Source of the DNA: Paramacrobiotus metropolitanus
Taxonomy: Eukaryota; Tardigrada; Eutardigrada; Parachela; Macrobiotidae
Length of the DNA stretch: 64,000 bases
Assembly: GCF_019649055.1 (NCBI RefSeq)
Contig: NW_026570254.1
Coordinates: forward strand, 62,001-126,000
Direction of reading: 5' to 3'
Position 1 is the first letter of the stretch. Every line of letters starts with the position of its first letter. The notes below the pieces were generated by a model that was given only the letters and a program-made list of their open reading frames with translations, was not told where the DNA came from and searched no databases. A program made the translations under genes and the position numbers. Shown here in pieces: positions 36,905 to 61,268 of the stretch.

Positions 36905-37476
36905 TGTCGTGTATAAGCGTTCACACCGATTAGGGTTCCATGAACAATCTTTACTCTTCCACGCCTGTAATGCTCAGTCGGTAGGCACTCGTACTCTCAA
37001 ACTGTAACAGATAAACTACGGTGGAACGACGGACGACTCGGGAACACGAGAACTCGGGAATCCCTAGCGAAGAGTCCAACTACGATCTCCGGTCGCAGTT
37101 TCTACGAGGATCAACAAGAGCTAGGACGATTGTGTCACGAGCAAACCTGTATACTAAGCGATAATCCGGGAACGATTATGCACTTCCGTAAGAACAAGTA
37201 TTGCTGCCTCTTTATTAATACACTTCGTAGTCCACAACACTAGGAAATCGTAATTAGAAAGCAGTCTCAGAAGTAAATCTCAGACTACTGATGTCGATAT
37301 TAGAAGTGACTGGAACTTATATAGACTCTGCGCTATGACATCACTTACACCACTAGTAAAAGAGAACAGCAAATCACAGCATTGATTGACTAGATTATTC
37401 GTATGTTTGCAGGTGGAAGGCGGACAGTCAGCATCCGTACGTACATCCCGGCGTGTGATCCTACTCCCACACGTCA
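36905..37476 (-). repeat. 3' LTR (left copy), 572 bp
   Basis: Starts TGTCGTGTATAAGCG and ends CACACGTCA on the plus strand, so the ends are TG...CA. It appears identical to 60697-61268. On the minus strand it contains TATATAA (37323-37317) and AATAAAG (37216-37210). Confidence 0.97.
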
Positions 37477-37487
37477 CCCCCACGAAC
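37477..37487 (-). other. Polypurine tract next to the 3' LTR
   Basis: Reads GTTCGTGGGGG on the minus strand immediately before the LTR's TGACG. It sits where plus-strand DNA synthesis is primed. The G run is short for a polypurine tract. Confidence 0.6.
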
Positions 37488-38153
37488 GATGCTTGGCCGT
37501 GCCAATATAAGCAATCCATCCCGCAACATCCCAGTGCGATTGTGCACTTCCATCCGTCCTGATCCCGATCCACCGCACAATCCACGTGTCCATCCGATGC
37601 CCGATGTGACTGTACGCCGCGATTCCGAATGAGTTAGTGTGTGGAATCCTTGGCGAAATGGCATCCGGAAGTCCACGGGTTTGGCAGGGCGGAGGTCCAA
37701 GGATCCAGGAAGGCGAACTATGAATTACTTGTACTGCATGTGCCGTTTTTAGATGGTGTGGTTGTATATACAGTACACGGCATAAAGCTTTACTAATGGT
37801 ATGATTAAAACTGAAAAATAAAATTACACTCGACTCGATGTTGTTGTACTATGGTTTAAACAAACGGAACCGTGAAATCAACCGGCTGGTATTCTTACGA
37901 ATTCTCGAAGACCAGTGACCACAGCAACAAGGTCAATCAACAATAACAAACAAGCTAAGCATAGTAATATAAAGATCATAAGTGCATAATATGGGTCAAC
38001 CAACACGAAAGTAGAAACCAATAAAAAGAGCAACAACAAGGGAGAGTAATAGAGCTCCAATGCATTAGAGTGATATATAAAACGGCACAATAACCAGTAA
38101 TAGCGGTGAGATCAAAAGGAAACAACAACAGATCATCGAAAGGTTATTTAAGG
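37488..38153 (-). other. 3' non-coding part of the element, with a hydrophobic frame
   Basis: Mostly without supported coding. The minus-strand frame 38108-37878 is open for about 76 codons and encodes two very hydrophobic segments (YSPLLLLFLLVSTFVLV and MIFILLCLACLLLLIDLVAVV). It has no good ATG and no obvious acceptor, so it is either the last exon of a spliced product or a composition effect. Confidence 0.35.
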
Positions 38154-38936
38154 TTACTTGCCAGCGCTAGGAGCCAATGAGAACAATCCGGTGATACCAG
38201 AACCAGACGCAGCGGCATCCAAACGGCGAGAAACATCCGCAGCCATCTGGCGTCGGCGATCTGCATCCAATTCACGCTGCTGCTGCTGAGCCAAATATCC
38301 AGGCACAAAATTGTGCTCAGCAGAACCAACAGGGCCGGAAGGCGCAGACGGCGCACGTGGACGATCAGCTGGAGAACGGTCACGGGCATCACGGATAATC
38401 GGCACCTCAGGCAACGGTACAACATTCGGCGGCAAACCCGGAAATTCAGCGTTCTGCTGCAGAGGCGGAATTACAGCCGGAGGAATAACAGCGTTCAAGG
38501 CTGGCGGGCCAGGTAAATTGACAGCAGGGTCGACAGCATGGGGCTGACCTGGAACCACAGCTCCGCCGCCTTGGACCGGATTCGGTGCATTCGGCGCTTG
38601 GTTTCCCGGGAGATCAACCTCCATGTCTGCGGCGGCAGCTTCCACTGGTGCAGCTGCGTTAGGAGCTCCATCAGGTATTTCAATAATCTCCGGTGCGCCC
38701 AGATGTCGGCCATTACGACGCCAGTGATCGTTTCCGCGACGGAGATTATTGTCTCCAAAATTCCGATGATTTCCTCTGCCGTACGGACGAAAGTTGCCAC
38801 GGAAAGTGCCACGGCCTCCACCCCTTCCTCGGTGATTATAACCGGCATTATACTGCTGTTGGTGCTGGTTAGAAGACGAATGAAAAATGGCGTCTACCAA
38901 CTTATCAAAGGCACGGTTAGGATCAATAGGCGGCAT
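38154..38936 (-). CDS. Accessory ORF: RGG-box, Pro-rich disordered protein
   Basis: About 260 codons from the ATG at 38936. Residues 30-80 are Arg/Gly/Asn-rich with RGRGGGRGTFRGNFRPYGRG, a typical RGG RNA-binding tract. The middle is Ala/Pro/Val-rich (PPALNAVIPPAVIPPL) and predicted disordered; a helical QQQQRELDADRRRQ segment lies near the C-terminus. No homologue recognised. An RNA-binding, nucleocapsid-like or condensate role is inference from composition. It is the accessory gene nearest the 3' LTR. Confidence 0.7.
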   Translation of the reverse strand: MPPIDPNRAFDKLVDAIFHSSSNQHQQQYNAGYNHRGRGGGRGTFRGNFRPYGRGNHRNFGDNNLRRGNDHWRRNGRHLGAPEIIEIPDGAPNAAAPVEAAAADMEVDLPGNQAPNAPNPVQGGGAVVPGQPHAVDPAVNLPGPPALNAVIPPAVIPPLQQNAEFPGLPPNVVPLPEVPIIRDARDRSPADRPRAPSAPSGPVGSAEHNFVPGYLAQQQQRELDADRRRQMAADVSRRLDAAASGSGITGLFSLAPSAGK

Positions 38937-39413
38937 GCCCAGACTCAAGAAAACTAGTGACCTTTTAACGCAAAAATGAAAAAGAGAGAAGCGTCAAAAA
39001 TCACACCTGAAGAAAGCAGAAAATCTAACACGCTACTGCGCTGAAACGAAAAATCCACAATGCCGATTTCTGCACGCTACACGCAAGTGATTTTATACCG
39101 GTCTGCCAGAGTGAAAGTTCAAAATGCGGCAGATTCCACAGGTAGAAGAGACGACCAATCAGCGCTTCGCGCTATATCCTTTAATTCAACTTAATCAGGA
39201 GATCAGATCTGTCTAGGCACAAAGGAAGATTCAGCACTAACGATTACCGCAAACACAACGACCAGTTCATTGACTCGAAATACCGCATCGAGGAATGAAA
39301 ATAGAGGTAAAAAGTGAGCAGCGCCTAACTCCTCAAAAACTAAAAGCTTAGTTTGTGCACAAATAGCAACAGAAATACCCGAAATACCAATAGCACCACG
39401 AAATGTAGCATGA

Positions 39414-40937
39414 CTACAACTCATCGGAATGTGGCTGCTGTTGACCGCGAGCCACCGATTCAGGAAATTCAGGCGAATCCTCATGGACAGTAGCTGGAAC
39501 CGCGGGAGCAACTGGTTGCATCGACGGCAGTGGATCTACTTCCATTTTCTCCAAGTCAGATCCATTATTGTCGTCAATTTCCATGTCGTCCTCCGCCTCG
39601 TCATCAGCGTTTTCATCAGCAGAGACGTCCGCAGCAGGATCGTCACTGCCATCATTATCCGAAACCGAGACTTCGCTTTCCGGTGAAGACGAGGACGGCG
39701 AAACCTCCTTGTATTTGCGCTTTTCTCCACGAGTACGAAAATAATAGGGACCGGCCGAAGTGGATGCCTCAGGTTCAGCATTCTCCGCAGCAGCAGATAC
39801 AACAAACGCTTGACGGGCAACCGCATCTGCCTGCTGATGCTTGGTGATTTCTTTAAACAAACCAATAAAAACAGGATTTAAATACAAATATTGCCGGCGA
39901 AGTTCAAGTGCAATTGGCGTAGGTAATCGAGAAGTGACGGAACAAAGATCAAAACGATGAATTAAAGTTCCATTCGGATATAAAAAGTGAGATAGGTACA
40001 ATTCCGAATAGCGGGGATGGAAGCGATTAAGACCAGAGAAATAGGCCTGCGAAATGACCACATCCTCACCATTCTTGTTCGGCATAGCCATTCTGGGAAA
40101 TACTCCGGAATGAGCTCGCTTGCGAGCCGTCTGCTTGGTTTTGTAAACCGGCCGCGGTGCCTTTGGATCGTACGGCACATATAAAATCCCGCCACGATTT
40201 AAATGCTCCTCATCTAGCAATAATGAAAGCCAGCAATTAGCTCTACACATTACGCGTATGCAACACAGTGACGATGGCTTAACATCAGCTAAATATCATA
40301 ACTGAGCATACAGATTCGTAAATGGTCATGACTGCAAGTGCGGGTAAAAACAACACAGGAAGAACCGAGTAAAATGCGGTTCTCGTTGTTATTCCACGAA
40401 AACAGACTACCACTACCCAATTTTTGCGAAAATACCTCGCTTTGCCCGCACAGACGGGGTTTCAGACGACGGTGGTTCCTCGTCCGTAAGATCCGGGGTA
40501 CCCAACTGTTTCTCCGCTTTCGTCTGCAATTTCTTTGGAGCTGGCGAGCGGATCTCAACGTCAGGATCAGCAGGGAATGATCCGCGGCGATCATGACGGC
40601 GAACCACAGCTGCATTACGCCGAGCAATAGTGCGTCGCTTTGCTTCGCGATATCGGTACTTTAGCGCACCAACTATGGCCTCAGTCCTACTAGTTGAAGG
40701 TTTAGGACTCTTTGCTGCCGTCCGACTTCCCGATGGCTCAGCCGACTGGGCAGAAAACGCTGGCTGCGACGACGTGCGCCGAGAAACTTGTGATCGAGTG
40801 ACTCTGCTGGAGGAACGAGCTTCATCGCTGTCAGGCGAATAACCAAACGACAAGCTTGACACTTCTCTGCGAGAGCGAGCCACAGGTGTGACCGTTTTGC
40901 GCGCAGTCGGAGTGAGCTTCTTCGGAGTTGACGACAT
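39414..40937 (-). CDS. Accessory gene, two exons, basic N-terminus and acidic C-terminus
   Basis: Exons 40937-40436 and 40213-39414, joined in phase 1 by a GTATTT donor and a TTGCTAG acceptor, about 433 residues. The first exon is Ser/Thr/Arg-rich with basic clusters (KYRYREAKRRTIARRN) that look nuclear-localising. The second has a folded-looking middle (GGILYVPYDPKAPRPVYK, FSGLNRFHPRYSELYLSHF) and a Glu/Asp/Ser-rich tail (ADENADDEAEDDMEIDD). No known domain. Presence of a clean intron means it is expressed from a spliced transcript, separate from the genomic RNA. Confidence 0.75.
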
Positions 40938-41528: not shown

Positions 41529-42900
41529 ATGGCTGCATTACCCGGAGAACCATCAGCAGAGACAGATGCGATTGAACACGCTCGATATTGGAAGGAGCGC
41601 ACGCGAGAATCCGTGCAGTTTGCGATGGATGCACCTTTTGTGGAGAACGAGACCGCTGAAAGCCGTCGTCAACTGGCTATGCACACAGCCGCGCACGCCT
41701 GCATTCTCGAAGCAGATATTACCGGTTTTTATGTGGATATTGCCCACATCAAGCAGTTCGTACAGGATATGCACACGGACTTCACTGCGGATCGAGTCGA
41801 AGTTTTCTTAGAAGATGCCATTAACGCTGGAATTCTGCTGAAGAAGATGGCGCGCGACGGGCGCTTCGTTCTAGAAGTCGCGGAAGACGTGTACAACAAC
41901 CGGCAGGTAAAGATCGTGGATACTTACAGCAAACTTCGCTGTATGATACGAGCAATTCTTTATCACGCCCGCTACGCCATGAGTCGACCGGAAATTCAGC
42001 AGTGGGCTACCGGAACATACGATCTCCAGCTCGAGAACTATGAGTACTGGTTCAACCGTGGCCTACATCGGCTGCTAGAAAGGAAACGAATCGTGATGGT
42101 TTATGGGAATCTGTACGTCCACAGCTGCATTGATCTATGGTTGCGGAGTATTCGCGGTTGCTGTCTGTGTGACACGTTGGCGCAAACAATTAGTAAGTGA
42201 TTTCCTGTATTTACAAACACGGAGCGAGGCGTCTTGTCTATACTCTGTCTGCGAGTCTGCACTAATATTACTCATTTGGACAAACAGAGAAAACCTTCAC
42301 TTTTCTTCAATATGATGATTTATATAATTTATAGATGTGAAGATGGGAACGTTAAAGATCGAAAGGAACGGAAAAGAGCTGGAACAGCAAGTAACCGATG
42401 CTAGTTTCGGCCATGTTGGCGAAGACGTGGAGTTAATCATTGACGGGGTGATGGAGCGCCTGGACGCCATCGAGCCAGCGAAAAACAACACTATCGGAGC
42501 CAACCTGCTTGTTCGCTCCAACAAGGACGCTCGGAGCAAGCGCGAGCCAATCATCACACTGAGTCAACTGAAGGAGATGAATGCTCGTCCGCGATATGTA
42601 GCACCCAAAAAGGACGGACAGCGTGAAAAAGGCAAAAAGAACAAGGAACATGGCGCCACAAAAGCTGAAAAAGCCAAGGCCAAAGCTGAAAAACCAGGCG
42701 ATGAGAACGCCGAAGACATCGATAAGCTGCTGAGGATGGTCGAAGGTGAGCAGGACATCATGAAGAACTGTAAAGCGCTGGTGAACACTCTAAAGGCACG
42801 AGTGTACACCGGCATCGATCAGATGAAATATGTGCGCGAGGCTTTGGAACAGCGTGTAGCCAATATCAACAATGCCAAAGAAGACGTGGATTTAGATTAA
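41529..42900 (+). CDS. Antisense two-exon gene inside the retrotransposon
   Basis: Opposite to all other element genes. Exons 41529-42192 and 42335-42900, joined in phase 1 by a GTAAGT donor and a TTTATAG acceptor, about 409 residues. The ATG at 41529 follows a T-rich leader. Exon 1 is alpha-helical and contains HARYWKERTRESVQFAMDAP and VEVFLEDAINAGILLKKMAR. Exon 2 is charged, with Lys/Glu/Ala-rich linker and a C-terminal helix (MKYVREALEQRVANINNAKE). No family recognised. In the +1 frame near 42103-42195 there is an excellent membrane segment (ALIYGCGVFAVAVCV followed by RWRK), which the spliced frame does not use; an alternative product is possible. Confidence 0.75.
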
Positions 42901-43319
42901 TTTACGGCGTTTTATGCATTTCTGGCGGCTGTTAAATAATTTGTTGGTAGCTGGACCGGTTGTTTGTATATCCTGGTTGTATCTTACTTTTGGATCTGAG
43001 TTTAATTTCGCTAACTTCGAAACCGATGCTCACGTAATTTCTGATTATCCTGGTCGTACGGATCTCATCCTTTGAGTTTAATATGAATTTTTATCAAGAG
43101 AATGTAATTGCCGGTCGTAATAATGTTGCCGGAATCAATTAAACGAATTTTAGCCGTAGACCTTGTGCATTACTAGGCTGTAGCACATTAATAAGAAAAT
43201 TAACCGTACTTTGTAATCGGGGCAAATTTAATTCCCAAAGATACAGCACATCCGCATAAATCAGCGTCGGCAAAGACCAAAAAGAGATAAAAAGAAATTT
43301 TATAAGATACAAAATGGGT
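42901..43319. other. Spacer between antisense gene and tRNA-like array
   Basis: No ORF or motif supported. Should contain the 3' end of the antisense gene. Confidence 0.4.
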
Positions 43320-43325
43320 CTTAAC

Positions 43326-43390
43326 GTGGAGTTGAACCTGAGAACTAGCTGCACGGCTACATCCTGTTCTTGCCACTACGCTAGCGTGAC
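43326..43390 (-). ncRNA. tRNA-like unit 1
   Basis: A box CTAGCGTAGTGGC (43384-43372), B box AGGTTCAACTCCAC (43339-43326). T-rich block follows near 43280. Confidence 0.6.
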
Positions 43391-43584
43391 TACGCACATT
43401 TCCAAACAATTATTTAGACACCGTAAGCGCCATGTGTATATATGATATGACTACATTAAAGCGTTGAGCAACCTATACGTTGCTTTTCCAGTTGAGACAT
43501 CAAGTTCAGTATCTCTTTGTGGCATAATTTCGTTCCACAATTATGCAAAAATATAGAACCGAAAAAGAGAGCTCTGAACATGCA

Positions 43585-43662
43585 ACATGCAACCTGAGAT
43601 TATCAAAGAGGTAGTAATTGTAATGAATGGCCATCATTCCAGCCACTGTACTACGAAGTCAT
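43585..43662 (-). ncRNA. tRNA-like unit 2, weak B box
   Basis: A box CGTAGTACAGTGGCTGG (43655-43639); B box degenerate, ATCTCAGGTTGC near 43600-43589; TCTTTTTC follows. Confidence 0.4.
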
Positions 43663-43841
43663 TCGATTGCAAGTGAAGACACGAGCATGCGCACTGTCAC
43701 TTCAAGAATATACACCATCATGCGCCGGTCTTCCAATTTAATTCTGCAATTCCAGAAAGTATTGTCAGTACTTTTCAAGGCGATTATAAAAATATAAAAC
43801 AAGAAAAAGTAGATTTCCCAGGAAATGCAATTCAACTGTGA

Positions 43842-43920
43842 GGGACTGAACCCGAAACCTTTTAGTTTCCCCGTTACTGTAGTTCAACGGTGCAAAGCAC
43901 TACACTACGACATTCTACGA
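43842..43920 (-). ncRNA. tRNA-like unit 3
   Basis: A box CGTAGTGTAGTGC (43909-43897), B box TTCGGGTTCAGTCCC (43856-43842), then ACTTTTTCTT near 43805. Confidence 0.6.
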
Positions 43921-44050
43921 CGGTACTTGTAAGTTGCTCAACGGAAACGATCGCAAAATGATCTTTGACAATGTCAACACATTATTCCCCATTACCATAA
44001 AAATATAAACCCGAAAAAGAAGGTTTTCAAAATTCGCAATTTTAACTTTA

Positions 44051-44122
44051 GGGATTTGAACTCTAGACCTGTGAAGCAGTTGGAGAACGAGAATTCCCGG
44101 CCGAGCCACTACGCTACGAGGT
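44051..44122 (-). ncRNA. tRNA-like unit 4
   Basis: A box CGTAGCGTAGTGGCTCGG (44118-44101), B box CTAGAGTTCAAATCCC (44066-44051), then CTTCTTTTTCGGG near 44014. An LTR/PBS-like stretch lies just upstream at 44148-44178. Confidence 0.65.
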
Positions 44123-44147
44123 GCTTTACGTAAGAGCCCCGTTGACT

Positions 44148-44178
44148 TTGACACCGGAAGCGCCATGTCGTGTATAAT
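44148..44178 (-). repeat. Internal copy of the PBS/LTR junction
   Basis: Plus strand GACACCGG, two bases, then GCGCCATGTCGTGTATAA, matching the real PBS/LTR junction at 60682-60714 except for three bases in the middle. Weaker relatives lie at 43418-43437 and 44893-44922, each just upstream of a tRNA-like unit. Confidence 0.75.
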
Positions 44179-44261
44179 TTGTGATAGCTCATCTGGTGGC
44201 TAAATTCAGCGTTCAGGTACAAAAATACTGCGAGAACAAAAATTTTGTAAGTACAATTTCA

Positions 44262-44331
44262 AAAGAGTTTCGATTAAACGGTGTGGACTAGCTCCTTCTT
44301 GTGGCTCTGGAAGTGAGCCACTATACTACAA
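44262..44331 (-). ncRNA. tRNA-like unit 5b, weak B box
   Basis: A box TGTAGTATAGTGGCTC (44330-44315) directly abuts unit 5a; B box TTTAATCGAAACTC is poor. Confidence 0.35.
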
Positions 44332-44396
44332 AATGAACCCGAGACTTCAGTAAGTAATTTCCTTGATTATTTGCTCGGCCACTACTCTACGAAATC
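44330..44396 (-). ncRNA. tRNA-like unit 5a
   Basis: A box CGTAGAGTAGTGGCCG (44391-44376), B box GTCTCGGGTTCATTTT (44345-44330). No terminator between it and unit 5b, so the two could be co-transcribed. Confidence 0.5.
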
Positions 44397-44593
44397 ATTC
44401 GACAGAAAGCACAGAACTGAAACATTACACTTGATATACATACAGCAACAGCATAATGTGCACTTGATTTATAAAGCCGCTCCCTTGAGGTAATTGCAAA
44501 ATTCGAATCGCCAGCGCGAATATCTTAAGTGAGACACTAATGAAAATATAAAAACCAAAAAGTAAGTGTTTCGAAATTACGATTTAATTCTAA

Positions 44594-44672
44594 GGGGTTT
44601 CGAACCCAGCACCTTCCAATTAACCATTGTCGTAGTTCAACAGGTCAAAGCACTATACTACGGCGTTCTACG
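44594..44672 (-). ncRNA. tRNA-like unit 6
   Basis: A box CCGTAGTATAGTGC (44663-44650), B box GCTGGGTTCGAAACCCC (44610-44594), an almost ideal B box, then CTTTTTGG near 44557. Confidence 0.65.
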
Positions 44673-44803
44673 ATGTTAATTTCGAATTCCTCCATCGGAA
44701 GTGATCGTAAAATTGTACTCGTCAAAGACAACGCATTTGTCAGCATTAATGTAAAAATATGAGACCCCAAAAAGAAAATTCTCGAAATACGCAATTTAAC
44801 TTG

Positions 44804-44876
44804 AGAGACTTGAACTCTAGACCTTGACACAGCTGATTAGCGTGGATTGTCGGTCTAACCACTACACCACAGAATA
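44804..44876 (-). ncRNA. tRNA-like unit 7
   Basis: A box GTGGTGTAGTGGTTAG (44870-44855), B box CTAGAGTTCAAGTCTC (44819-44804), then CTTTTTGGGG near 44769. The D-arm-like segment resembles tRNA-Val or tRNA-Asp heads. Confidence 0.65.
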
Positions 44877-45063
44877 TCCGCCATTATAACTTGACACCGG
44901 AAATGCGCCAACGTGCGTATAATAGTAACGCGGCCGGACATACGACTCCTTCGCTCATTCATTGTGATGGCAAAATTCAAAAGAACAGCACCAAAATATT
45001 GATATGTTACCGTATAAAAATATAAAATCGAAAAAGAAGGTCTGACAAATTGTGCATCAATTG

Positions 45064-45140
45064 TGGGGGTTTGAACCCAAGGCCTTAGATCAACCGGGTG
45101 GTCACAGAAATTGGCCACACGACCACTACACCACGAGAGT
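45064..45140 (-). ncRNA. tRNA-like unit 8
   Basis: A box CGTGGTGTAGTGGTCG (45135-45120), B box CTTGGGTTCAAACCCCC (45080-45064), then CCTTCTTTTTCGA near 45031. Confidence 0.65.
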
Positions 45141-45328
45141 ATCTGGCAAAATTACTATCAAATAATGTCGTACGGTTAACGTCGTTATAGTTTCCACTTT
45201 TGTAGCGATCTGTCTCAATGTAGGATAAGCCGTAATTCACATTATTTAATCCCGTGTCCTAAAATATGAAAGCATAAAATAATAAAACCAAAAAAGGAAA
45301 GTGTATTTACAAAATCGCGTTTTTATAT

Positions 45329-45390: not shown

Positions 45391-45395
45391 GCTCT

Positions 45396-46118: not shown

Positions 46119-46133
46119 CTGATTAAAATAATA

Positions 46134-52840: not shown

Positions 52841-55800
52841 GCCGAATTAGTCGGTTCTATGATGCCGTCCTTAATCATTTCTTGTGTTTTAGCTTGGAGC
52901 CATTTTCTATCTTCAAACGATGTGCGATACGGAGGAGTTCGAACCGGCAAACTCGTTCCCGTGTCTACCGAGTGCTCATAAATGGTACAACATCCGACTG
53001 GACGAGCTTTCGTTGGTAGAACTGACTTTGCTTGATAGACGATCTGTTTAAGCTCTTCTTTGCTTGGGCAAATCTCACCGACTTTAATTTTGGCAAACGT
53101 TTCTTCCGTTTCAGGATCGACAGCACAGGGAGCGGAAGACTGCGACTGCATCGCGACACATTCATTAATTTTGTCCGGTATCGGAACACCTTTTTCATCG
53201 CGTGAAACGCCGCAAGAGTCACCGTGACAGCTTTCCTGAAATTCTGGAGAGTCCATCTGATACACAGCATCAACTAGTACTACTTCACCAAGGTTAGTTT
53301 CTTCGTTTAAAACCAGTGGTTTGTCGGAAACGTTGACGACACAGAGCCGACAGTTGCCATATTCGTTAAGCGTCAAAACGCCATCTAGTAAGACAGCGTT
53401 TTTATTTGATTCTGGTATTTTTCCTTCGTAGAGAAATGGCTGAGTATATAAATACTCATCCTGGAATTCCATAAATTGTTCGTCCGACATGGCTGTTGTC
53501 GCCCGAATAATTCCCTGCGAATGGGGCTGAATTATCACCGGTGAAGCCGGAAAGAGCTCCATTTTGAAGCAATCAATTGGACCAGGTTCAGGCTCAAAAC
53601 GGTAAATGTCATGTTCCGCTAAATTAATTTCTGTCTGGGCTTGTGCTTGTTTCAGATGGGCGTCCCTGTACGCCAACTCAATGACATCCTTTGTGTAAAC
53701 ACATGCCGGAATATCCGTGGATTCACGAACATCCTGGGACCGTTTTGGTAGGTTTTTAGGTACTTGCTGCTGCACCGGAGCCGGTTGCACTGTCTCGGCG
53801 GACATCTGGCTTGCCGCATCTCTTTCCGCATATTCGCGTTTAATTCGTCGACTATAACTGGACTTTTTGCGCCGGGGCGAACTCCTTCCCGAGCCCTCCG
53901 ATACCTGTTCGTCATTTCCCACGGTGGGTTGTGCTGTATTAACTCCCACAGACTCTCTCAACGCTTTTTGTTTTTGTATTTCGTTCCAGATTGCCCACTG
54001 TTCGTTAATATTTACATCGGTGGGGGTATCATATGTTGCCCTGACAGCCGGAGGAAGCAAGTCTGACATTTGGTCACTAATCAACTTATGCTCCTGGGGT
54101 GAGTTGCCAATCAATTGAGAGTTAACTTCCCTTTGCTTCTCCGCCTGCTTATCTTCATAGGAAACCGGGCAAGGGCCAATATTGATAGGCTTCATGCCGT
54201 CCGCAGGAATGAAGTTACCATCCTCGAAATCACCAGCAGGTGCCGGATTATCCACAGAAAAGGTAACTTTACGTGTTCCTGTTGCTCTCTGGGCATGCAA
54301 TTGTTCCTTCCGTTTTGTTAATTCAAAATGTCGCCGATCGTTTACCGAATTACGACATATGTCGCAGTTCTTTTCGTATCGCTCGATTTCAATAATACAA
54401 TCTGGCCAGTAAAAGACCTTAATTAGATACGGATATAATTTTTCGCACCGGCCGTATACCTGTTTATGCACTAAAATATCGTGAAAGCAAGCTATTAATT
54501 TTTGCCGCCATTGGTGTGGCACAAAAATCCTCGGGCATGCGCCAGAGTGATCGGGCACTCTGCACAGAATTCCTTCACAAATAATCAACCGGTTAACCTC
54601 ATATTTTGTGTAATTCGTATTTGCATGCGCCGGCTTCTTGTACATTTTATACCACATACGGCTGTCCACACACATCTGTTGAGTTTCTCTCCAGAACTGT
54701 GGATCGCGAAACATTTTTTCTGTAGGGAACAAGCTTTTATCCTGTGGTCTATCCATCGGTGACATCCACCTTTTCAACTCTGGATTCCGTGCCATGAAAG
54801 ACGGATAATCATGGACTTCGTCGGCGTCTCTGCAGTCACGTTCAACAGGTATGACATTTAACAGCTTATTATCCATGCTGAGGCATTCTACTGACTTAGA
54901 CGATTTTTCCAAAACACCCAAATACAGATATTTTGCTGCAGGATGCTGCTGTAGGACTGCGTCCAAAGATGAAATCTGAATGGGAAGTTGTAAGGGATCA
55001 TCACCCCCACGAACTTGACGTGAGCCAGAATTGGGCGCGGGACTAATCGATACCGAAGGCGAGGTACTCGAACTGGATGCTGGCGACGGCTGACGGATTT
55101 TTTCTTGTTTAATTGGCGGCTGGGGAGACACTTGTTCTCTCCCCCACGAACTTGACTGCATATTATGTACAATTATTTCGCCGCCTCCCCCACGAACTTG
55201 ACTTGGTTCTGGGATTTTTTCCGTCTTAATTTCTTTTTTAATTACAGGTTTGACCGGTTCGTCAGCGACGGAAGCCGCTTTCGGGAGATATTGACGAATC
55301 ATCTCCTGAACTACACTACGGACAAACTCCTCATCACGTTGATCGGATCCTTTCTTCGACGGTGCCGCTTGTACGGGCACAAGTTCCTCAATTTCCGGTT
55401 TGATAGGAGCGTCCGCAACTTTTATCGCCGGTGGCGATTGAACTGGACGAGGCCATGACTGTTTGGCTTTCTGTAAGTGTAGGATGCAAATCTCCGGATC
55501 AGCTTTTGCCAGAATTAAATGTGCGGATTCGTATGGCACAAATTTTGCCTCTTTAGCGACGCCAATTCGTTCAGTCAACATCAGCGCTGGAATCAAAGGA
55601 GACGGTTTGACTCCAGGAGGGATTAAGGGGTCGAAGTCGTGTGAACGGATAACATCCGACATAAGGTGAGTTTCGCGACGAAGGAATACTGGCGCACCAG
55701 GCGGTCTACGCGAGAGATGCCACGTCATCGTATTCATGTCTAAAACAAATGGTTTTGTAGCTAAAAAGTCTAAACCTAAAACAACGTGGTCCCTGTCGAA

Positions 55801-58800
55801 GGTGGAACTCACCAAAACTGCGTGCTCAAAAGCCATCCCGAATTCATGGATGGTGACCACCACCGACAATGGCTCAATCAGCTGTCTTCCCTGGTAAGCT
55901 GTGTGAACGACTCTACCTTTAATGTGGTCCGGACAGCGGTGGATATTTAAATTTAAATCCTTCGCCATTTTTAACGACATAACGGAAATGCTAGAACCGG
56001 TATCTAACATTGTCTTCACTTTCTGATAATTAATGTCGATTACAGAGTACCAAGCCTGGGCATCCAGCGTTGGCAACAGACAAACGTGATCCGCAAGTGG
56101 GTACTGGGAAAAGTCCTGGATTTCCATTTTATTACACTGAGGTCTCGGGGAAGACAAACCTGCTGGTAAGTCTAACTCCATCATATTAATCTGTTGTTGC
56201 GGATTGTTGTATCGAGCCAACAATTCTGCAGACGGCTCATACTGACGTGGAAGGACGAACTGGTTCGTACAGCCTGCTGCCGGGTGTAACCCATGGCAGC
56301 GGAAACAAATCTCAACTCCGCGGTTTGTTCGCCATTTATCTTTTAAAATGTTACGCTCATCAAACGGAGGTTGATTACCAGCCTGCTGTTGCGGGCGATA
56401 ATTCTGACCTGGGCCATTCTGATATTGTTGACGATTATTATTATTATTATAGCCTCCACGCTGATTATTATTCCCACGGTAGTTATTATTTGGGCGGTAA
56501 TTCCCACGATTATAGCCGCCGTTATTATTATTATTATTATTCGCAGGAGCGTTCTGCTGGTACTGTGGATCAAGATTCTGTACTGGCTGCTGATATTGCG
56601 GTTGCATTACCGGTATCATTGGATTCATCATCTGCACAGGAACAGGCATAGCAGCTTGCATCGGGATAGGCTGCTGAAAGGTCTGCGCAAATTGTACTGG
56701 TTGTTGCTCAACAAATTGTGGCTGTTGATAAACCGGAACCGGGACGAACTGCGGCTGGGACACACTCAGGATAGGCTGCACTGGGGCCACAGAATTTTGC
56801 TGCTGTGGGATCACAGTTTCAGTGTATGAACGGGAATATCCTCCGCGATTATTCCCATAATTTCCACGACCCGCGCGAGTTGGGTAATAATTTCCTCTTT
56901 GAGACGAGCCACCACGGCCGCCTCGGTTTTCGTAATTCGAGTTATTTCCAGCACTCCTCGGTTCTGCTGGTATATTCCTTTGGGTAGTTTCGGGCGCTTT
57001 CTTATCTTTATTCATACGTTTCCACAGTTTCTCACAGTCCTGTAGTTTCTTTTCAAATTCTGAATAATTCTTTGGTGATGCGTTGTAGATCTCGCGGAAC
57101 CATGCCGGCCGGTGATCCTGAACACCCTCCAAGAGTGCTTCAACCTGCTCTTCACCTGAGATTTTTAGCTCCTCAAACCATGGGAGGAAACTATCCAGGT
57201 AAGCACGAACTGGCTCATAAAAATCCAGTTTACGATTGTTCATTTTTCTGCGTATATCCGCTTTAGACAATGAGCCATTAAAATGCTCAATAATTGCCGG
57301 TTTAAAGAAATCAGACCATGATTTTCCTTTATTGTCCTTCCAGAATTTTTCAAACCATTGAAAGGATGCTCCAGTGAAAGCACCGGTTACTCTACGGCAA
57401 GTAACCTCATCATTCCAATTATTCGTGGTTCGACATTGCTCCACATTCATAAGCCACTTCTGGATTTTTTCTGGATGGGAATCGTCGAAGGTAAGTAATT
57501 TCATACTGCCTTCGGCTTTATCGTTTCCTTTGTCCGCAAGTTTCGAGATTAATTCGACAACGCATTCTTGTGTAAGCGCTGCCCTATCCGATATTTGCGT
57601 TTGCTTGATTAACCATTCCTCCAATTGTGTGCTTCTGGAAGTGGATTCATTACTGGCTGTACTACTAGGACGGCGGTGTTCGTCATCGGCCAGTATATCA
57701 TCCATCAGATCATTTTCGATATCAGAACCGTCCCTGTTTTCCGATTTGCGCACATGGCGACTAACGTCATCGGACGCCCTTTTAAATATCTCTTGCCGCA
57801 AATCTGTTGACCGATTTTTCCTTTGATTAGGCGGCACTGTTTCCTTAGGAATCTGGCTTTCCGAAGACGAACGGGGCATTGCATGCGCTTCTGAAAATTC
57901 AACCCGTGATTCCTGTCTGGGCTTCCGAAGGATACTAGCCGGATTGGTTACAACAGCTGAAGGCTGTTCATTGGATGTGGAGAAGTTCTGGGGGTCAAAC
58001 AAGGAAAGAGGAGTGGACCGCAACACATCACCTGTCGCTACCGGCGCCTCCCTTTCAAAATGTCTTTGACCTCCTCCAAGAGCAAGACCAGAATTTCTGA
58101 ACTGGAGATGTTCATTGCACGCTTGCTTAAATTCATCCTCCAATTTGGTGAGTTGATCTTGTTTTTCGTACCATTCATCACGAAGCTGTTTGTTTTCTTC
58201 ATATAAACGGTTGCAATTTTGATCTTTCTCGAAGGCGGCAGCTTGTGCGTTCCTCTTCGCTTTAATTGCTGATTCACAATTAGCGCATTTTTTATTATTT
58301 TTTATGTCGCTCAGTTCCTTCTGGACCTTGCGATTATTCTCCTTTTCGGCATCCAGTAATCCTTCGAGCCGTTCAATTTCTTTTTGAGACTGCTCATCCT
58401 TTTCCTTAGGAATATGCATCGGGCCAACCGTAGACAATTTGTTAAGCTGTACATTTGCTTTAGTTAGGTCCCGCTGCAGGGTGTCCTCTTTATCTTTAGC
58501 GCGCTTCTTTTCATCATCTAAATCCTTAGCAAGCTTTTGAGACAGATTTTGCGCATCCGCTAAGTTTTTATTGGTCATCTTGTGCGCGTCTTTTTCCGCA
58601 TTCAGGTCCCGCTGGGCTTTCGTTAATTTCTGGTCTAGGTCCATAACCTGCTTCGTCGTATCAGGGAGCGTTTGTGCTTTAAAACCGTCAATGGTAACTT
58701 TCGCCGCCGACAGCTCCCTCTGAGCTTCCTCTAACTGTTTTTCCAAATGCCGATTAGCGTCTTTTAATCCGTCACGCTCATCTTTCACAGCATTGAGAGC

Positions 58801-59943
58801 ATTTTGTGCGTTTCTGCCAACATCTCGTGACTGAGACAAATTATCGGCGGCGATGCGTAGTTCATTTACCAAACGATCATTTTCGGTTTGTTCATTTTCG
58901 AATTTAATGCGCATCTCATTAAAGTCATTCTGGAATTTTAATTTCAGATTACGTTCTGCATCCACACGAGCGTCCAGGGACATAGAGTTCCCCATTTCGT
59001 CTACTTTTGATTTCGTAGTTGCGATCCATGTCCGCAGACCCTGGAGCAGCACGGGCATCGTCTTCCGGGCGACTAATCCCACATCTTGATCGGTTTGTGT
59101 AAGGGCTAGAAGCCCATCAACTTCCTTTGCCTTAGCCAGAAATTCCTCATCAGGTTGTTCGAAGTCTTTTTCCGAAACAAACGCATGTAATTTCAATTGT
59201 GTCGGGTGAAAAGACATCCCGCCCCCCATGATACTTTTCTTTCTTGCAGATGCTTCCGGAGCTATATCCGCATTTTCACCAAACGCCATGTGAATGGGCG
59301 TATCATCCTCTGATCGGATATCCTCATCCATATCAAAATCTGGGAGAGGTTGTTCCTTGTTAAAGAGGCTTTCCTCTGAAAGTGGCTCTACGAGCTTAAG
59401 CGGTTCTGTATTTGGTTCACTACGAGTAATTTGTTCTGTATTCTCGGTAGTTTTCGATTTTGCCGCCACCGCACGCTTGGGTCGATCGTCAGAAACGGAC
59501 TCCTTTGGTTTTATTCCAACTTTTGCAGCTGCTTCAAGCGCAATAATGGCCGCTTTTCTACGATCTTCCATATTTTTCTTATATTCAGGTAACCACTTGT
59601 AAGCTTTTTTAACTGCTTCATTAAACTGTTCATCAGTGATATCCAGGTAGTCTTCTGGAATACACCGTTCAGTCTCATACCATCCATTGTAGTAAAAGGG
59701 TGCCCTTTTGTTTGGGTCCACCGATTTCCCCAACTCCTGGAAATCTACCCACGGCTTACCACAATAAGCTCTGGAACCTTTGGGTGGTTCTAGATTGAGT
59801 GCGAAATACATCAAACCTAACGGTATTTCGTCGGGTTTGAATTTAAACCTGGTTTGTGTCGCCGCGCCTTCATATGGACCTTGTATAACCTTATCTTCTG
59901 GAACTTGGCTTAGCGCCTTGTTCTTATTTTCTGGATTGGACAT
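52789..59943 (-). CDS. gag-pro: ORF1: giant gag-protease with coiled coil, zinc modules and RT N-terminus
   Basis: 2384 codons from the ATG at 59943, several times longer than a normal gag-pro. Order: N-terminal globular-looking region with CGKPWVDFQELGK and YNGWYETERC; long coiled coil about 320-630; Ser-rich linker; retrotransposon gag (capsid) domain about 815-980 (GAFTGASFQWFEKFWKDN); Asn/Gln/Gly-rich segment about 1040-1180; zinc knuckle near 1213 with spacing CX2CX3HX4C, one residue shorter than standard; aspartic protease with DTGSS near 1314 and LGLDFL; a 450-residue linker; H2C2 zinc module about 1775-1865 (QWRQKLIACFHDILVHKQ... CDIC); another linker; RT N-terminus ending at 52789. 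ORF2 continues the RT in the -1 frame. Confidence 0.95.
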   Translation of the reverse strand: MSNPENKNKALSQVPEDKVIQGPYEGAATQTRFKFKPDEIPLGLMYFALNLEPPKGSRAYCGKPWVDFQELGKSVDPNKRAPFYYNGWYETERCIPEDYLDITDEQFNEAVKKAYKWLPEYKKNMEDRRKAAIIALEAAAKVGIKPKESVSDDRPKRAVAAKSKTTENTEQITRSEPNTEPLKLVEPLSEESLFNKEQPLPDFDMDEDIRSEDDTPIHMAFGENADIAPEASARKKSIMGGGMSFHPTQLKLHAFVSEKDFEQPDEEFLAKAKEVDGLLALTQTDQDVGLVARKTMPVLLQGLRTWIATTKSKVDEMGNSMSLDARVDAERNLKLKFQNDFNEMRIKFENEQTENDRLVNELRIAADNLSQSRDVGRNAQNALNAVKDERDGLKDANRHLEKQLEEAQRELSAAKVTIDGFKAQTLPDTTKQVMDLDQKLTKAQRDLNAEKDAHKMTNKNLADAQNLSQKLAKDLDDEKKRAKDKEDTLQRDLTKANVQLNKLSTVGPMHIPKEKDEQSQKEIERLEGLLDAEKENNRKVQKELSDIKNNKKCANCESAIKAKRNAQAAAFEKDQNCNRLYEENKQLRDEWYEKQDQLTKLEDEFKQACNEHLQFRNSGLALGGGQRHFEREAPVATGDVLRSTPLSLFDPQNFSTSNEQPSAVVTNPASILRKPRQESRVEFSEAHAMPRSSSESQIPKETVPPNQRKNRSTDLRQEIFKRASDDVSRHVRKSENRDGSDIENDLMDDILADDEHRRPSSTASNESTSRSTQLEEWLIKQTQISDRAALTQECVVELISKLADKGNDKAEGSMKLLTFDDSHPEKIQKWLMNVEQCRTTNNWNDEVTCRRVTGAFTGASFQWFEKFWKDNKGKSWSDFFKPAIIEHFNGSLSKADIRRKMNNRKLDFYEPVRAYLDSFLPWFEELKISGEEQVEALLEGVQDHRPAWFREIYNASPKNYSEFEKKLQDCEKLWKRMNKDKKAPETTQRNIPAEPRSAGNNSNYENRGGRGGSSQRGNYYPTRAGRGNYGNNRGGYSRSYTETVIPQQQNSVAPVQPILSVSQPQFVPVPVYQQPQFVEQQPVQFAQTFQQPIPMQAAMPVPVQMMNPMIPVMQPQYQQPVQNLDPQYQQNAPANNNNNNNGGYNRGNYRPNNNYRGNNNQRGGYNNNNNRQQYQNGPGQNYRPQQQAGNQPPFDERNILKDKWRTNRGVEICFRCHGLHPAAGCTNQFVLPRQYEPSAELLARYNNPQQQINMMELDLPAGLSSPRPQCNKMEIQDFSQYPLADHVCLLPTLDAQAWYSVIDINYQKVKTMLDTGSSISVMSLKMAKDLNLNIHRCPDHIKGRVVHTAYQGRQLIEPLSVVVTIHEFGMAFEHAVLVSSTFDRDHVVLGLDFLATKPFVLDMNTMTWHLSRRPPGAPVFLRRETHLMSDVIRSHDFDPLIPPGVKPSPLIPALMLTERIGVAKEAKFVPYESAHLILAKADPEICILHLQKAKQSWPRPVQSPPAIKVADAPIKPEIEELVPVQAAPSKKGSDQRDEEFVRSVVQEMIRQYLPKAASVADEPVKPVIKKEIKTEKIPEPSQVRGGGGEIIVHNMQSSSWGREQVSPQPPIKQEKIRQPSPASSSSTSPSVSISPAPNSGSRQVRGGDDPLQLPIQISSLDAVLQQHPAAKYLYLGVLEKSSKSVECLSMDNKLLNVIPVERDCRDADEVHDYPSFMARNPELKRWMSPMDRPQDKSLFPTEKMFRDPQFWRETQQMCVDSRMWYKMYKKPAHANTNYTKYEVNRLIICEGILCRVPDHSGACPRIFVPHQWRQKLIACFHDILVHKQVYGRCEKLYPYLIKVFYWPDCIIEIERYEKNCDICRNSVNDRRHFELTKRKEQLHAQRATGTRKVTFSVDNPAPAGDFEDGNFIPADGMKPINIGPCPVSYEDKQAEKQREVNSQLIGNSPQEHKLISDQMSDLLPPAVRATYDTPTDVNINEQWAIWNEIQKQKALRESVGVNTAQPTVGNDEQVSEGSGRSSPRRKKSSYSRRIKREYAERDAASQMSAETVQPAPVQQQVPKNLPKRSQDVRESTDIPACVYTKDVIELAYRDAHLKQAQAQTEINLAEHDIYRFEPEPGPIDCFKMELFPASPVIIQPHSQGIIRATTAMSDEQFMEFQDEYLYTQPFLYEGKIPESNKNAVLLDGVLTLNEYGNCRLCVVNVSDKPLVLNEETNLGEVVLVDAVYQMDSPEFQESCHGDSCGVSRDEKGVPIPDKINECVAMQSQSSAPCAVDPETEETFAKIKVGEICPSKEELKQIVYQAKSVLPTKARPVGCCTIYEHSVDTGTSLPVRTPPYRTSFEDRKWLQAKTQEMIKDGIIEPTNSAWGSPICIVKRRINPGD
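55003..55197 (-). repeat. Three internal copies of the polypurine-tract junction motif
   Basis: CCCCCACGAAC occurs at 55006-55016, 55141-55151 and 55187-55197, the same 11-mer as at 37477-37487. The first copy extends to 14 bases (TCACCCCCACGAAC) that include the last three LTR bases. In ORF1 they encode or overlap a QVRGG-type repeat. Confidence 0.8.
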
Positions 59944-60071
59944 TCTTACGGTAAGTACAGTAACTATTGTGCTACAGCTTACCGTAACTTGGAAAGTTAC
60001 AATTATGCAACTCTATTTCGCTGGACAGTCCTCCTTTAAGGTTTGAACTGCTCAGTGAAAAGATTCAATCA

Positions 60072-60598
60072 CAGCCGACCTTTGCGGTTCGGCTGCAAAA
60101 CTAACTCTTAAAATTCTTTGCTGCACTTTGCGTGCTGCCGTAATTTTAACTCACAGGTCAATCACCGTTTGCCGGTGTTTACCTTTTCACGATCAACTAT
60201 CTCTAGCTGCTGATTTTGGCTACCGCTTGCGGCTTGCCTTTATCGAGCTGCTGGAGATCGTTATCTTACCTGGCCACTGACAGTGGCTCAGAGCTTACTA
60301 TCTGATTTATCTGCCGGCCAGGTACACTGACACAACAGTTCACAGTTTATTCGCCGCGGTTACTGCTTTGCGCAGACAACCCGGAAATTACCCACGAAAC
60401 ACCACTCAATTCACACAGTCGACCTTTGCGGTTTCGACTGTTTTTCCCTACGGTCCGATTAAATTAAATTTAAATTTAATTGGCGAGGAAGCTCACCAGT
60501 GAGGAAGCTCACGATTGCGAGGAAGCTCGCCAAAATAAATTAACTAGGCCAGATCAGGAACGCTGACCTCCTTCGGCGCACCTTTGCGGTTCGACGCC
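60072..60598 (-). other. Leader hairpin family A, loop ACCGCAAAGG
   Basis: Hairpin A1: 60072-60078 pairs with 60089-60095 (7 bp). A2: 60415-60422 pairs with 60434-60441 (8 bp). A3: 60575-60578 pairs with 60595-60598 plus a wobble. All have the same loop (ACCGCAAAGG in element sense). Stems differ at paired positions and stay complementary in A1 and A2. A2 and A3 are also followed by a shared TTTCC...TACGG block. Confidence 0.75.
60482..60530 (-). other. Leader hairpin family B, tetraloop CUUC
   Basis: Three adjacent hairpins at 60482-60497, 60499-60512 and 60517-60530, each with the loop CUUC in element sense. Stems GUGAG/CUCAC and GCGAG/CUCGC show a compensated pair change; the first is closed by a U-G wobble. 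Confidence 0.8.
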
Positions 60599-60681
60599 TT
60601 TCCTATACGGACCACTTTTACTGTAAATTACCACCAAACTTTCCACCAATAATTTTCTGTTACATCGGGAAAATTAAAAGA

Positions 60682-60696
60682 CACCGGTGGGCGCCA
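60682..60696 (-). other. Primer binding site, tRNA-Lys-like
   Basis: Immediately inside the 5' LTR, the minus strand reads TGGCGCCCACCGGTG. TGGCGCC complements the 3' end GGCGCCA of tRNA-Lys. The inner part fits an acceptor stem beginning GCCCACC. Confidence 0.8.
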
Positions 60697-61268
60697 TGTC
60701 GTGTATAAGCGTTCACACCGATTAGGGTTCCATGAACAATCTTTACTCTTCCACGCCTGTAATGCTCAGTCGGTAGGCACTCGTACTCTCAAACTGTAAC
60801 AGATAAACTACGGTGGAACGACGGACGACTCGGGAACACGAGAACTCGGGAATCCCTAGCGAAGAGTCCAACTACGATCTCCGGTCGCAGTTTCTACGAG
60901 GATCAACAAGAGCTAGGACGATTGTGTCACGAGCAAACCTGTATACTAAGCGATAATCCGGGAACGATTATGCACTTCCGTAAGAACAAGTATTGCTGCC
61001 TCTTTATTAATACACTTCGTAGTCCACAACACTAGGAAATCGTAATTAGAAAGCAGTCTCAGAAGTAAATCTCAGACTACTGATGTCGATATTAGAAGTG
61101 ACTGGAACTTATATAGACTCTGCGCTATGACATCACTTACACCACTAGTAAAAGAGAACAGCAAATCACAGCATTGATTGACTAGATTATTCGTATGTTT
61201 GCAGGTGGAAGGCGGACAGTCAGCATCCGTACGTACATCCCGGCGTGTGATCCTACTCCCACACGTCA
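60697..61268 (-). repeat. 5' LTR (right copy), 572 bp
   Basis: Appears identical to 36905-37476. On the minus strand, TATATAA at 61115-61109 is followed about 105 bases later by AATAAAG (61008-61002), giving a normal U3-R-U5 layout. Confidence 0.97.
61109..61115 (-). promoter_or_regulatory. LTR TATA box
   Basis: TATATAA in the 5' LTR, correctly oriented for ORF1/ORF2 transcription. The plus-strand antisense gene must use another promoter. Confidence 0.7.

What the first reader, a model, noticed from the sequence alone, without database searches (positions are those of the whole stretch)
36905..61268. A 24.4-kb LTR retrotransposon with about 11 kb of accessory genes
The sequence shows apparently identical LTRs, a TSD, PBS, gag-pro and pol, plus at least four accessory genes with start codons or clean introns. 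Ty3/Gypsy elements normally end shortly after pol or carry one env. Three accessory genes have introns, so the element must make several spliced mRNAs and still keep an unspliced genomic RNA. I know of no described element with this gene set.
Basis: partly seen in the sequence, partly recalled or inferred. Interest (0 to 1): 0.92.

Follow-up and report, generated by a model that had tools for sequence, protein, structure and literature searches.

The report
Giant tardigrade retroelement with tRNA-like array
A tardigrade genome carries a family of 24,000-base virus-like jumping genes that hold six extra protein genes preserved by selection, one of them on the opposite strand, and a recurring array of tRNA-like promoter sequences that the cell's tRNA-making machinery would likely bind, which suggests that such elements can carry far richer gene programmes than usual.

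Summary
The element at 36905-61268 lies on the minus strand: identical 572-bp LTRs, a 4-bp TSD, a tRNA-Lys PBS, Ty3-type gag-pro-pol, then 11.8 kb between pol and the 3' LTR. The host is the tardigrade Paramacrobiotus metropolitanus. Two introns are conserved across copies; the third is absent to the base from two copies, as expected if spliced RNA was reverse-transcribed. One two-exon gene is antisense. LTR pairs are 99-100% identical in 10 of 10 copies, so the family moved recently. The accessory proteins match nothing convincing; one has a weak linker-histone-like match. I read it as a complex-retrovirus-like Ty3 element with spliced regulators, an antisense regulator and a TFIIIC/Pol III array. 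No RNA data were available: expression is predicted, not shown.

The parts
36901..36904 (.). target-site duplication CGTT (one copy; the other at 61269-61272)
   Evidence: read; exact 4-bp TSDs also in 7 of 10 other copies
36905..37476 (-). 3' LTR (element sense is minus)
   Evidence: identical to the other LTR over 572 bp
37477..37720 (-). conserved noncoding stretch next to the 3' LTR, ending in the G run CGTGGGGG taken as polypurine tract
   Evidence: 89-98% identical to the window in 10 other copies (284-nt alignment that takes in 20 nt of LTR); no excess folding (z -0.63)
38154..38936 (-). acc5, 260 aa, RGG-rich then proline-rich, predicted RNA-binding
   Evidence: found in 9 of 10 other copies; alignment; median dN/dS 0.20
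40436..40937 (-). acc4 exon 1 (Arg-rich)
   Evidence: found in 9 of 10 other copies; alignment; median dN/dS 0.22
40214..40435 (-). acc4 intron, GT..AG
   Evidence: GT and AG kept in the 9 other copies that have the gene
39414..40213 (-). acc4 exon 2 (acidic C-terminal half, ends HSDEL); spliced product 433 aa
   Evidence: median dN/dS 0.15
41529..42192 (+). acc3 exon 1, antisense gene, weak linker-histone-like match
   Evidence: found in 10 of 10; median dN/dS 0.06
42193..42334 (+). acc3 intron, GT..AG
   Evidence: GT in 10 of 10, AG in 9 of 10 other copies
42335..42900 (+). acc3 exon 2; spliced product 409 aa
   Evidence: found in 10 of 10; median dN/dS 0.12
43314..45401 (-). array of tRNA-like A-box/B-box units followed by T runs; A boxes at 45401 (weak), 45133, 44869, 44660, 44389 (weak), 44116, 43907, 43653 (weak), 43383
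45936..46118 (-). acc6, 60 aa, newly found
   Evidence: found in 10 of 10 other copies, partial in two; median dN/dS 0.14
47388..47469 (-). acc2 exon 1
   Evidence: same N-terminus in four other copies, a different one in six
47293..47387 (-). acc2 intron, present in the window and two other copies, absent to the base from two others
46691..47292 (-). acc2 exon 2, Cys-rich LCCVDCENxGPGTCG; spliced product 227 aa
   Evidence: found in 10 of 10; median dN/dS 0.20
48073..48930 (-). acc1, 285 aa
   Evidence: found in 10 of 10, broken in some; median dN/dS 0.11; at least 40 genomic places
49268..52846 (-). pol frame: RT, RNase H, H2C2, integrase
52789..60012 (-). gag-pro frame, 2407 aa, protease near residues 1326-1418, runs into the start of RT; frame broken inside RT in this copy
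60680..60696 (-). primer binding site, tRNA-Lys(CTT)
60697..61268 (-). 5' LTR

Best explanation
This is a young, multi-copy Ty3/Gypsy LTR retrotransposon family of the tardigrade Paramacrobiotus metropolitanus that likely runs a programme like that of a complex retrovirus, with six accessory genes under purifying selection and an array of tRNA-like units that the host factor TFIIIC would bind. How it would work: the 5' LTR makes one full-length RNA, which serves as genome and as gag-pro-pol message (inferred from the family). Splicing of part of that RNA gives messages for acc2 and acc4; the conserved GT..AG sites and the exact absence of one intron from two copies indicate that splicing happened in the past. 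acc4, a two-exon protein with an Arg-rich first half and an acidic second half, is my candidate for a Rev- or Tat-like regulator that lets unspliced RNA leave the nucleus or raises transcription (predicted). acc3 would be made from the opposite strand as a separate spliced RNA (inferred from its orientation and intron) and, by its weak linker-histone-like match, would act on chromatin or on the element's own transcription (predicted). The tRNA-like array sits between the sense genes acc1, acc2, acc6 and the antisense gene acc3. Its A and B boxes would recruit TFIIIC and Pol III, giving short RNAs, a boundary between the two blocks, or both (predicted).
For: Ten other copies: LTR pairs 99-100% identical; nine lie at 22.4-24.0 kb LTR spacing, the tenth at 44 kb. 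Each accessory gene is found in 9 or 10 of 10. Median dN/dS: acc1 0.11, acc2 exon 2 0.20, acc3 exons 0.06 and 0.12, acc4 exons 0.22 and 0.15, acc5 0.20, acc6 0.14; the acc6 stretch read in a wrong frame gives 1.56. Introns. Array: 7 hits in the window's array region against a mean of 0.22 and a maximum of 3 in 300 Markov shuffles; 5-8 distinct units in the homologous stretch of each other copy (66 in all, overlapping pairs counted once); in 11 array zones, two of them cut short, 68 sense against 3 opposite hits. In unit 3, found in all 11 copies, the A and B boxes are 98% identical between copies, the rest 74%. A probe from one unit finds only 11 genomic places. acc3 exon 1: 7 of 10 members match Pfam Linker_histone, best E 2.3e-4.
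Against: No RNA evidence of any kind was available. ARAGORN and Rfam call no tRNA in the array; RNAalifold shows no cloverleaf, and two of six unit classes fold clearly better than column shuffles (z -3.1 and -4.8; the others -1.7 to -0.25). In classes u1 and u10 the boxes are not clearly more conserved than their surroundings. The same scan also gives background: 8 sense hits outside the array and 5 opposite-strand hits in the ten 8-kb pieces. T runs are common in AT-rich DNA and were required by the scan, so they say little. The acc3 histone match of the window member is below Pfam's curated cutoff (17.1 against 22.4 bits). The other accessory proteins match no Pfam family convincingly, so the Rev/Tat role of acc4 rests on composition alone. 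Both structure predictions, made without alignments, failed. Some copies lack acc4 or acc5 and several have single genes broken. The window copy itself has a broken pol frame.
Confidence: 0.8

Rival explanations
1. The array is not a set of RNA genes but a cluster of TFIIIC sites that works as an insulator or heterochromatin barrier, separating the sense block from the antisense gene and keeping the element open to transcription.
For: The boxes look better conserved than the tRNA fold, most clearly in unit 3. The array lies between two oppositely oriented gene blocks in the copies read. tRNA genes act as barriers in fission yeast (PMC2040200, abstract seen).
Against: Barrier activity there did not depend on tDNA orientation (same abstract), whereas here 68 of 71 hits share one strand. 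Class B keeps an anticodon-stem-like pairing between the boxes (z -4.8), which bare TFIIIC sites would not need.
Confidence: 0.35
2. The array is a decayed satellite of tRNA-derived repeats carried passively, kept similar only by recent amplification and exchange between copies.
For: Units form a degenerate tandem repeat with a higher-order period near 750 nt; tandem repeats sit between pol and the 3' LTR in about half of recently active Retand elements (PMC11963269 abstract). Two unit classes show no excess conservation of the boxes.
Against: Strand and box spacing recur in copies whose LTRs differ from the window's by 3-14%; unit 3 keeps its boxes at 98% identity against 74% outside.
Confidence: 0.2
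3. The accessory block is a chance capture of host genes or of another virus by one copy.
For: Orphan proteins; acc1, the only one searched, has no match at E 1e-3 in a database of 5.8 billion proteins, 4681 candidates scored.
Against: Each gene is in 9 or 10 of ten other copies, with purifying selection at synonymous distances up to about 2; acc1 has at least 40 genomic places. An ancient capture by the family's ancestor remains possible.
Confidence: 0.02
4. It is an endogenous or still infectious retrovirus (errantivirus-like) whose envelope is one of the unknown proteins or part of the long gag-pro frame.
For: Burro elements have an Env-like region inside ORF1 (PMC6431247, passages). Here about 900 residues between protease and RT are unexplained apart from an H2C2-like match.
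Against: No envelope family among ten proteins scanned with Pfam; no accessory protein looks like a membrane protein to me by eye (no predictor was run). A hydrophobic frame at 38111-37878 is not kept open in distant copies.
Confidence: 0.1

Closest known systems
Burro giant Gypsy-like elements of planarians (PMC6431247, passages seen)
   Same: Internal region of up to 25 kb, very long first ORF, extra domains and accessory ORFs in a Ty3/Gypsy frame
   Different: Burro puts MATH, BIR, BCL2 and Env-like domains inside ORF1; Pfam finds none of these in the 2407-aa frame here. No antisense gene or tRNA-like array is mentioned in the passages I read
Retand/Ogre elements of plants (PMC11963269, abstract and Discussion seen)
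   Same: Long pol-to-3' LTR region with antisense ORFs predicted to bind DNA and, often, tandem repeats
   Different: There the region is 2.9-6.6 kb with mainly antisense ORFs; here it is 11.8 kb with five sense genes and one antisense gene, and the repeats carry A and B boxes
Cer1 of C. elegans (PMC10309623, abstract seen)
   Same: LTR retrotransposon with a spliced accessory protein, CERV, needed to export the unspliced genomic RNA; the functional model for acc4
   Different: One spliced accessory protein in the abstract; no array and no antisense gene mentioned there
Helenus and Ajax TRIMs, Cassandra (PMC10886601, abstract and outline seen)
   Same: LTR elements that carry a Pol III promoter from a small RNA gene
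   Different: Short non-autonomous elements with such a sequence in the LTR; here an internal array in a coding element
TMERs of murine gammaherpesvirus 68 (PMC8223928, passages seen)
   Same: A viral set of tRNA-like Pol III units with A and B boxes (their number, eight, is recalled)
   Different: TMERs continue into miRNA hairpins; here a T run follows the B box within 7-46 nt, which leaves little room for them if it ends the transcript
HTLV-1 HBZ and other antisense retroviral genes (HBZ recalled; antisense genes of HTLV and STLV named in the PMC11963269 Discussion)
   Same: Spliced regulator encoded on the strand opposite to gag-pol
   Different: No sequence relation tested

Membership tests
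Ty3/Gypsy (Metaviridae) LTR retrotransposon | pol order RT, RNase H, integrase | tested here: met
   Pfam; best solved structure Ty3 Gag-Pol, E 1.9e-89
Ty3/Gypsy (Metaviridae) LTR retrotransposon | paired LTRs with TG..CA ends, short TSD and tRNA primer site | tested here: met
   exact 4-bp TSD in the window and 7 of 10 other copies; 1 imperfect, 2 not readable from the alignment ends
Ty3/Gypsy (Metaviridae) LTR retrotransposon | gag with capsid domain and zinc knuckle, aspartic protease | tested here: inconclusive
   protease met; no Pfam capsid match at E up to 1, though a gag-like stretch and a CFRCHGLHPAAGC word are seen by eye
Retrovirus or errantivirus | envelope gene | tested here: inconclusive
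   no envelope family among ten proteins; no confident fold
Burro | MATH, BIR, BCL2 and ankyrin domains in a giant ORF1 | tested here: not met
   none at E up to 1 in the 2407-aa frame
Retand/Ogre | antisense ORFs between pol and the 3' LTR | tested here: met
   acc3
Retand/Ogre | RT lineage and TRP28 domain | not tested
   no reference RT set or TRP28 model was used
Pol III type 2 (tRNA-like) transcription unit | A box and B box at tRNA-like spacing followed by a T run | tested here: met
Pol III type 2 (tRNA-like) transcription unit | occupancy by TFIIIC/Pol III and transcripts | not testable with these tools
   no expression or ChIP data held
Functional tRNA gene | cloverleaf with anticodon | tested here: not met
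   ARAGORN none (bacterial-code setting), Rfam none, no cloverleaf in RNAalifold
TMER | tRNA-like part followed by miRNA hairpin in one transcript | tested here: inconclusive
   T run 7-46 nt after the B box; the sequence beyond the T run was not folded
SINE | many dispersed copies outside the element | tested here: not met
   11 places for a probe from one unit, the window and three of the copies read here among them; other units not probed

The most novel reading that the evidence does not exclude
The first LTR retroelement found to carry its own battery of RNA polymerase III genes: about eight tRNA-like RNAs, made apart from the LTR promoter, that blunt host silencing or divert host factors while spliced and antisense regulators time the element's own transcription, a gene programme as rich as that of a complex retrovirus plus a herpesvirus-like small-RNA cluster, evolved in a tardigrade.
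Probability: 0.4. Interest if true: 0.93.

Novelty: new variant of a known kind. Interest (0 to 1): 0.82.

Why it matters
It shows that a Ty3/Gypsy element can hold six constrained accessory genes on both strands, with introns, and still move: every LTR pair read is 99-100% identical. If the array is active, LTR elements would join herpesviruses in carrying clusters of Pol III units, and the old question of why some retroelements keep large 'non-essential' regions becomes testable in an animal. The exact intron absence is a natural record that fits reverse transcription of partly spliced RNA. The orphan, strongly constrained proteins are also fresh candidates for RNA-export and anti-silencing factors.

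Tried and rejected
Rejected: chance capture by one copy; a common SINE as the source of the array (one unit only); a structured export element next to the 3' LTR (strong conservation, but folding z only -0.63 on the window strand and -1.53 on the alignment, so a CTE-like function stays a guess); a small membrane protein at 38111-37878 (open in close copies only); true tRNA genes (ARAGORN and Rfam call none). Thought unlikely, not tested: TMER-type hairpins beyond the T runs.

Led nowhere: AlphaFold2 on single window sequences of acc3 exon 1 (pLDDT 46.7) and acc1 (37.3), so no fold search was made; PDB profile searches of acc3 exon 1 and acc1 (best E 0.38 and none); the protein search with the acc1 profile (none; the other accessory proteins were not searched, the cap being reached); the pol search (120 listed relatives at 27-43% identity); Pfam on acc6 and on four sequences of acc4 exon 1 (nothing convincing). 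The acc6 stretch was first read in a wrong frame and redone, and the mistake serves as a control. One search returned nothing because of a wrong option and was redone. One paper search was malformed.
Full report
WHAT IS THERE. The element spans 36905-61268 and reads on the minus strand. Its LTRs (36905-37476, 60697-61268) are identical over 572 bp, begin TG, end CA, and are flanked by CGTT. The primer site abuts the 5' LTR and matches 13 nt at the 3' end of a host tRNA-Lys(CTT), CCA included. A 2407-aa gag-pro frame (60012-52789) and a 1192-aa pol frame (52846-49268) carry protease, RT, RNase H, H2C2 and integrase domains in Ty3/Gypsy order; the closest solved structure is Ty3 Gag-Pol (E 1.9e-89). 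Between pol and the 3' LTR lie 11.8 kb.

THE HOST. The window is part of contig 34 of a 169.8-Mb assembly in 533 contigs. The RNA polymerase II gene on contig 20 is 99% identical to that of Paramacrobiotus metropolitanus over the 561 residues compared, and the contig length of that record, 1,459,995, equals that of contig 20. The host is therefore this tardigrade.

OTHER COPIES. A probe from the LTR found 41 places (173 candidates, 40 scored). The window and nine others form LTR pairs 22.4-24.0 kb apart, and an eleventh pair lies 44 kb apart. I read pieces of the ten copies other than the window. Their LTR pairs are 99.0-100% identical (0-6 mismatches; in one copy only 321 bp aligned), and their LTRs are 86-97% identical to the window's, so several lineages moved recently. 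Exact 4-bp TSDs are seen in 7 of 10; one is imperfect and two could not be read from the alignment ends. The PBS is the same in 9 of 10. In the eight copies where both sides of the RT junction were found, six have gag-pro and pol in one frame there, three of these with another frame change nearby; the window and two copies are broken at the junction; in two copies one or both sides were not found. This is described only; no repair was attempted.

SIX ACCESSORY GENES. acc1, acc2, acc3 and acc6 are found in 10 of 10 other copies; acc4 is missing from one copy and acc5 from another. Several copies have single genes broken by stops or frameshifts; only frames covering at least 60% of the window's frame entered the dN/dS sets. 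Median pairwise dN/dS (Nei-Gojobori) and number of sequences, window included: acc1 0.11 (10), acc2 exon 2 0.20 (11), acc3 exon 1 0.06 (10), acc3 exon 2 0.12 (11), acc4 exon 1 0.22 (10), acc4 exon 2 0.15 (10), acc5 0.20 (9); acc6 0.14 (11, two of them partial). Pairs with saturated dS were left out: 2, 5, 23, 27, 0, 0, 0 in that order, so the acc3 medians rest on 22 of 45 and 28 of 55 pairs; none was left out for acc6. The pairs are not independent. The acc6 stretch in a wrong frame gave 1.56. A scan of all window frames of at least 40 aa shows that frames overlapping a real gene also look conserved, so openness alone was not used as evidence.

INTRONS. The acc4 intron keeps GT and AG in the nine other copies that have the gene. 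The acc3 intron keeps GT in 10 of 10 and AG in 9 of 10. The acc2 intron is present in the window and two copies and absent to the base from two others, whose frame runs straight from exon 1 to exon 2. Six further copies have a different N-terminus of acc2 without an intron there, so they say nothing about loss. Exact absence is what retrotransposition of a spliced RNA leaves; a single intron gain in an ancestor of the three carriers is the alternative. acc3 runs on the plus strand, so its message cannot come from the LTR-driven sense RNA (inference from orientation).

THE ARRAY. On the minus strand from 45401 to 43314 are tRNA-like units. With A box TRGYNNARNGG (up to 1 mismatch), B box GGTTCRANNCC (up to 2), 28-75 nt apart and TTTT within 90 nt, the array region has 7 hits; 300 Markov shuffles give a mean of 0.22 and a maximum of 3. 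The whole element has 9 sense hits and 2 antisense hits; 36.9 kb of left flank has 2 on both strands together. In the other ten copies I count 5-8 distinct units in the homologous stretch, 66 in all with overlapping pairs counted once; the same ten 8-kb pieces hold 8 more sense hits outside the array and 5 on the opposite strand. In the 11 array zones alone, two of them cut short by my slice, there are 68 sense and 3 opposite hits, with the T run 7-46 nt after the B box. Box distances are mostly 32-34 or 42-45 nt. In unit 3, found in all 11 copies, boxes are 98% identical between copies and the rest 74%; in classes A, B and u2 the boxes exceed the rest by 0.07-0.18; in u1 and u10 they do not clearly. 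Units were chosen by their boxes, so this comparison is partly circular, least so for unit 3. Two of six classes fold better than column shuffles (z -3.1, -4.8), none as a cloverleaf. ARAGORN and Rfam call nothing. One unit used as probe finds 11 genomic places, the window and three of the copies read here among them.

PROTEINS. acc1 has no relative at E 1e-3 in a database of 5.8 billion proteins, 4681 candidates having been scored. acc3 exon 1: 7 of 10 members match Pfam Linker_histone, best E 2.3e-4, the window member at 17.1 bits against a cutoff of 22.4. acc1: 5 of 10 have a weak winged-helix match, best E 0.011. acc2 exon 2, acc4, acc5, acc6 and acc3 exon 2: nothing convincing in Pfam. 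By eye: acc4 is Arg-rich then acidic and ends HSDEL or HSEEL in the nine of ten members that reach the C-terminus; acc5 is RGG-rich; acc2 has a Cys cluster. Single-sequence folds failed.

HOW IT PROBABLY WORKS. Shown: gene content, selection, intron conservation, strand, box array, recent movement. Inferred: a full-length RNA for gag-pro-pol and genome, spliced messages for acc2 and acc4, an antisense message for acc3, TFIIIC/Pol III on the array. Predicted with least support: acc4 as export or transactivation factor, acc3 as chromatin regulator, array RNAs or boundary as protection from silencing.

KNOWN RELATIVES. Burro (PMC6431247, passages) is as large but packs extra domains into ORF1. 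Retand (PMC11963269, abstract and Discussion) has antisense ORFs and tandem repeats in the same place. Cer1 (PMC10309623, abstract) has a spliced export factor. TRIMs with tRNA-like LTRs (PMC10886601, abstract and outline) and MHV68 TMERs (PMC8223928, passages) are the nearest for the array. A tardigrade repeat study (PMC11071193, passages) covers Hypsibius and Ramazzottius; the words Paramacrobiotus and giant do not occur in its text. In the listings of my searches I saw no LTR element with an internal array of Pol III units; each listing shows only the top papers, and subscription papers and preprints are not held, so this is not proof of absence.

VERDICT. A real, recently active family, known in kind (giant Ty3/Gypsy), new in its combination of six constrained genes, an antisense spliced gene and a tRNA-like array.

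Noticed in passing
43414-43435 and 44147-44168 (minus strand reading): Words like the primer binding site (TGGCGCTTCCGGTGTC against TGGCGCCCACCGGTGTC) sit 48-49 nt before the A box of some array units; 14 in 11 arrays against 1.05 expected, found in 9 of 11. Upstream promoter element or PBS relic; unexplained.
   Followed up: partly
37477-37720: The stretch next to the 3' LTR is 89-98% identical to the window in copies whose LTRs are 86-97% identical to it, and it is not one open frame in all copies. It lies where some simple retroviruses keep an RNA export element (recalled), but its folding is not unusual.
   Followed up: partly
46691-47469: acc2 has two unlike N-termini among the copies (MDxxxGPFSY type in the window and four copies, MEMEFYKSE type in six), joined to the same Cys-rich C-terminal part, which suggests module exchange between element lineages.
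   Followed up: partly
52789-60012, residues 1831-1888: A second H2C2 (integrase zinc-binding-like) match lies between protease and RT, and a similar-looking stretch closes pol by eye; about 900 residues between protease and RT are unexplained.
   Followed up: no
39414-39431: acc4 ends in HSDEL or HSEEL in the nine of ten aligned members that reach the C-terminus, which resembles an ER-retention signal although no signal peptide is seen by eye.
   Followed up: no
13844-14573: Tandem array of a 51-bp unit (14 copies, 80% matches) in the left flank.
   Followed up: no
22729-22837 and 23111-23220: Two 31-bp-unit arrays whose units look like reverse complements of each other, possibly a foldback repeat.
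   Followed up: no
33051-33698: Open frame with calcium-binding EGF domains, the clearest host gene among the eight flank frames scanned.
   Followed up: no
G000 contig 201: One copy has its LTRs 44 kb apart instead of 24 kb, probably through a nested insertion; acc4 is missing from it.
   Followed up: no
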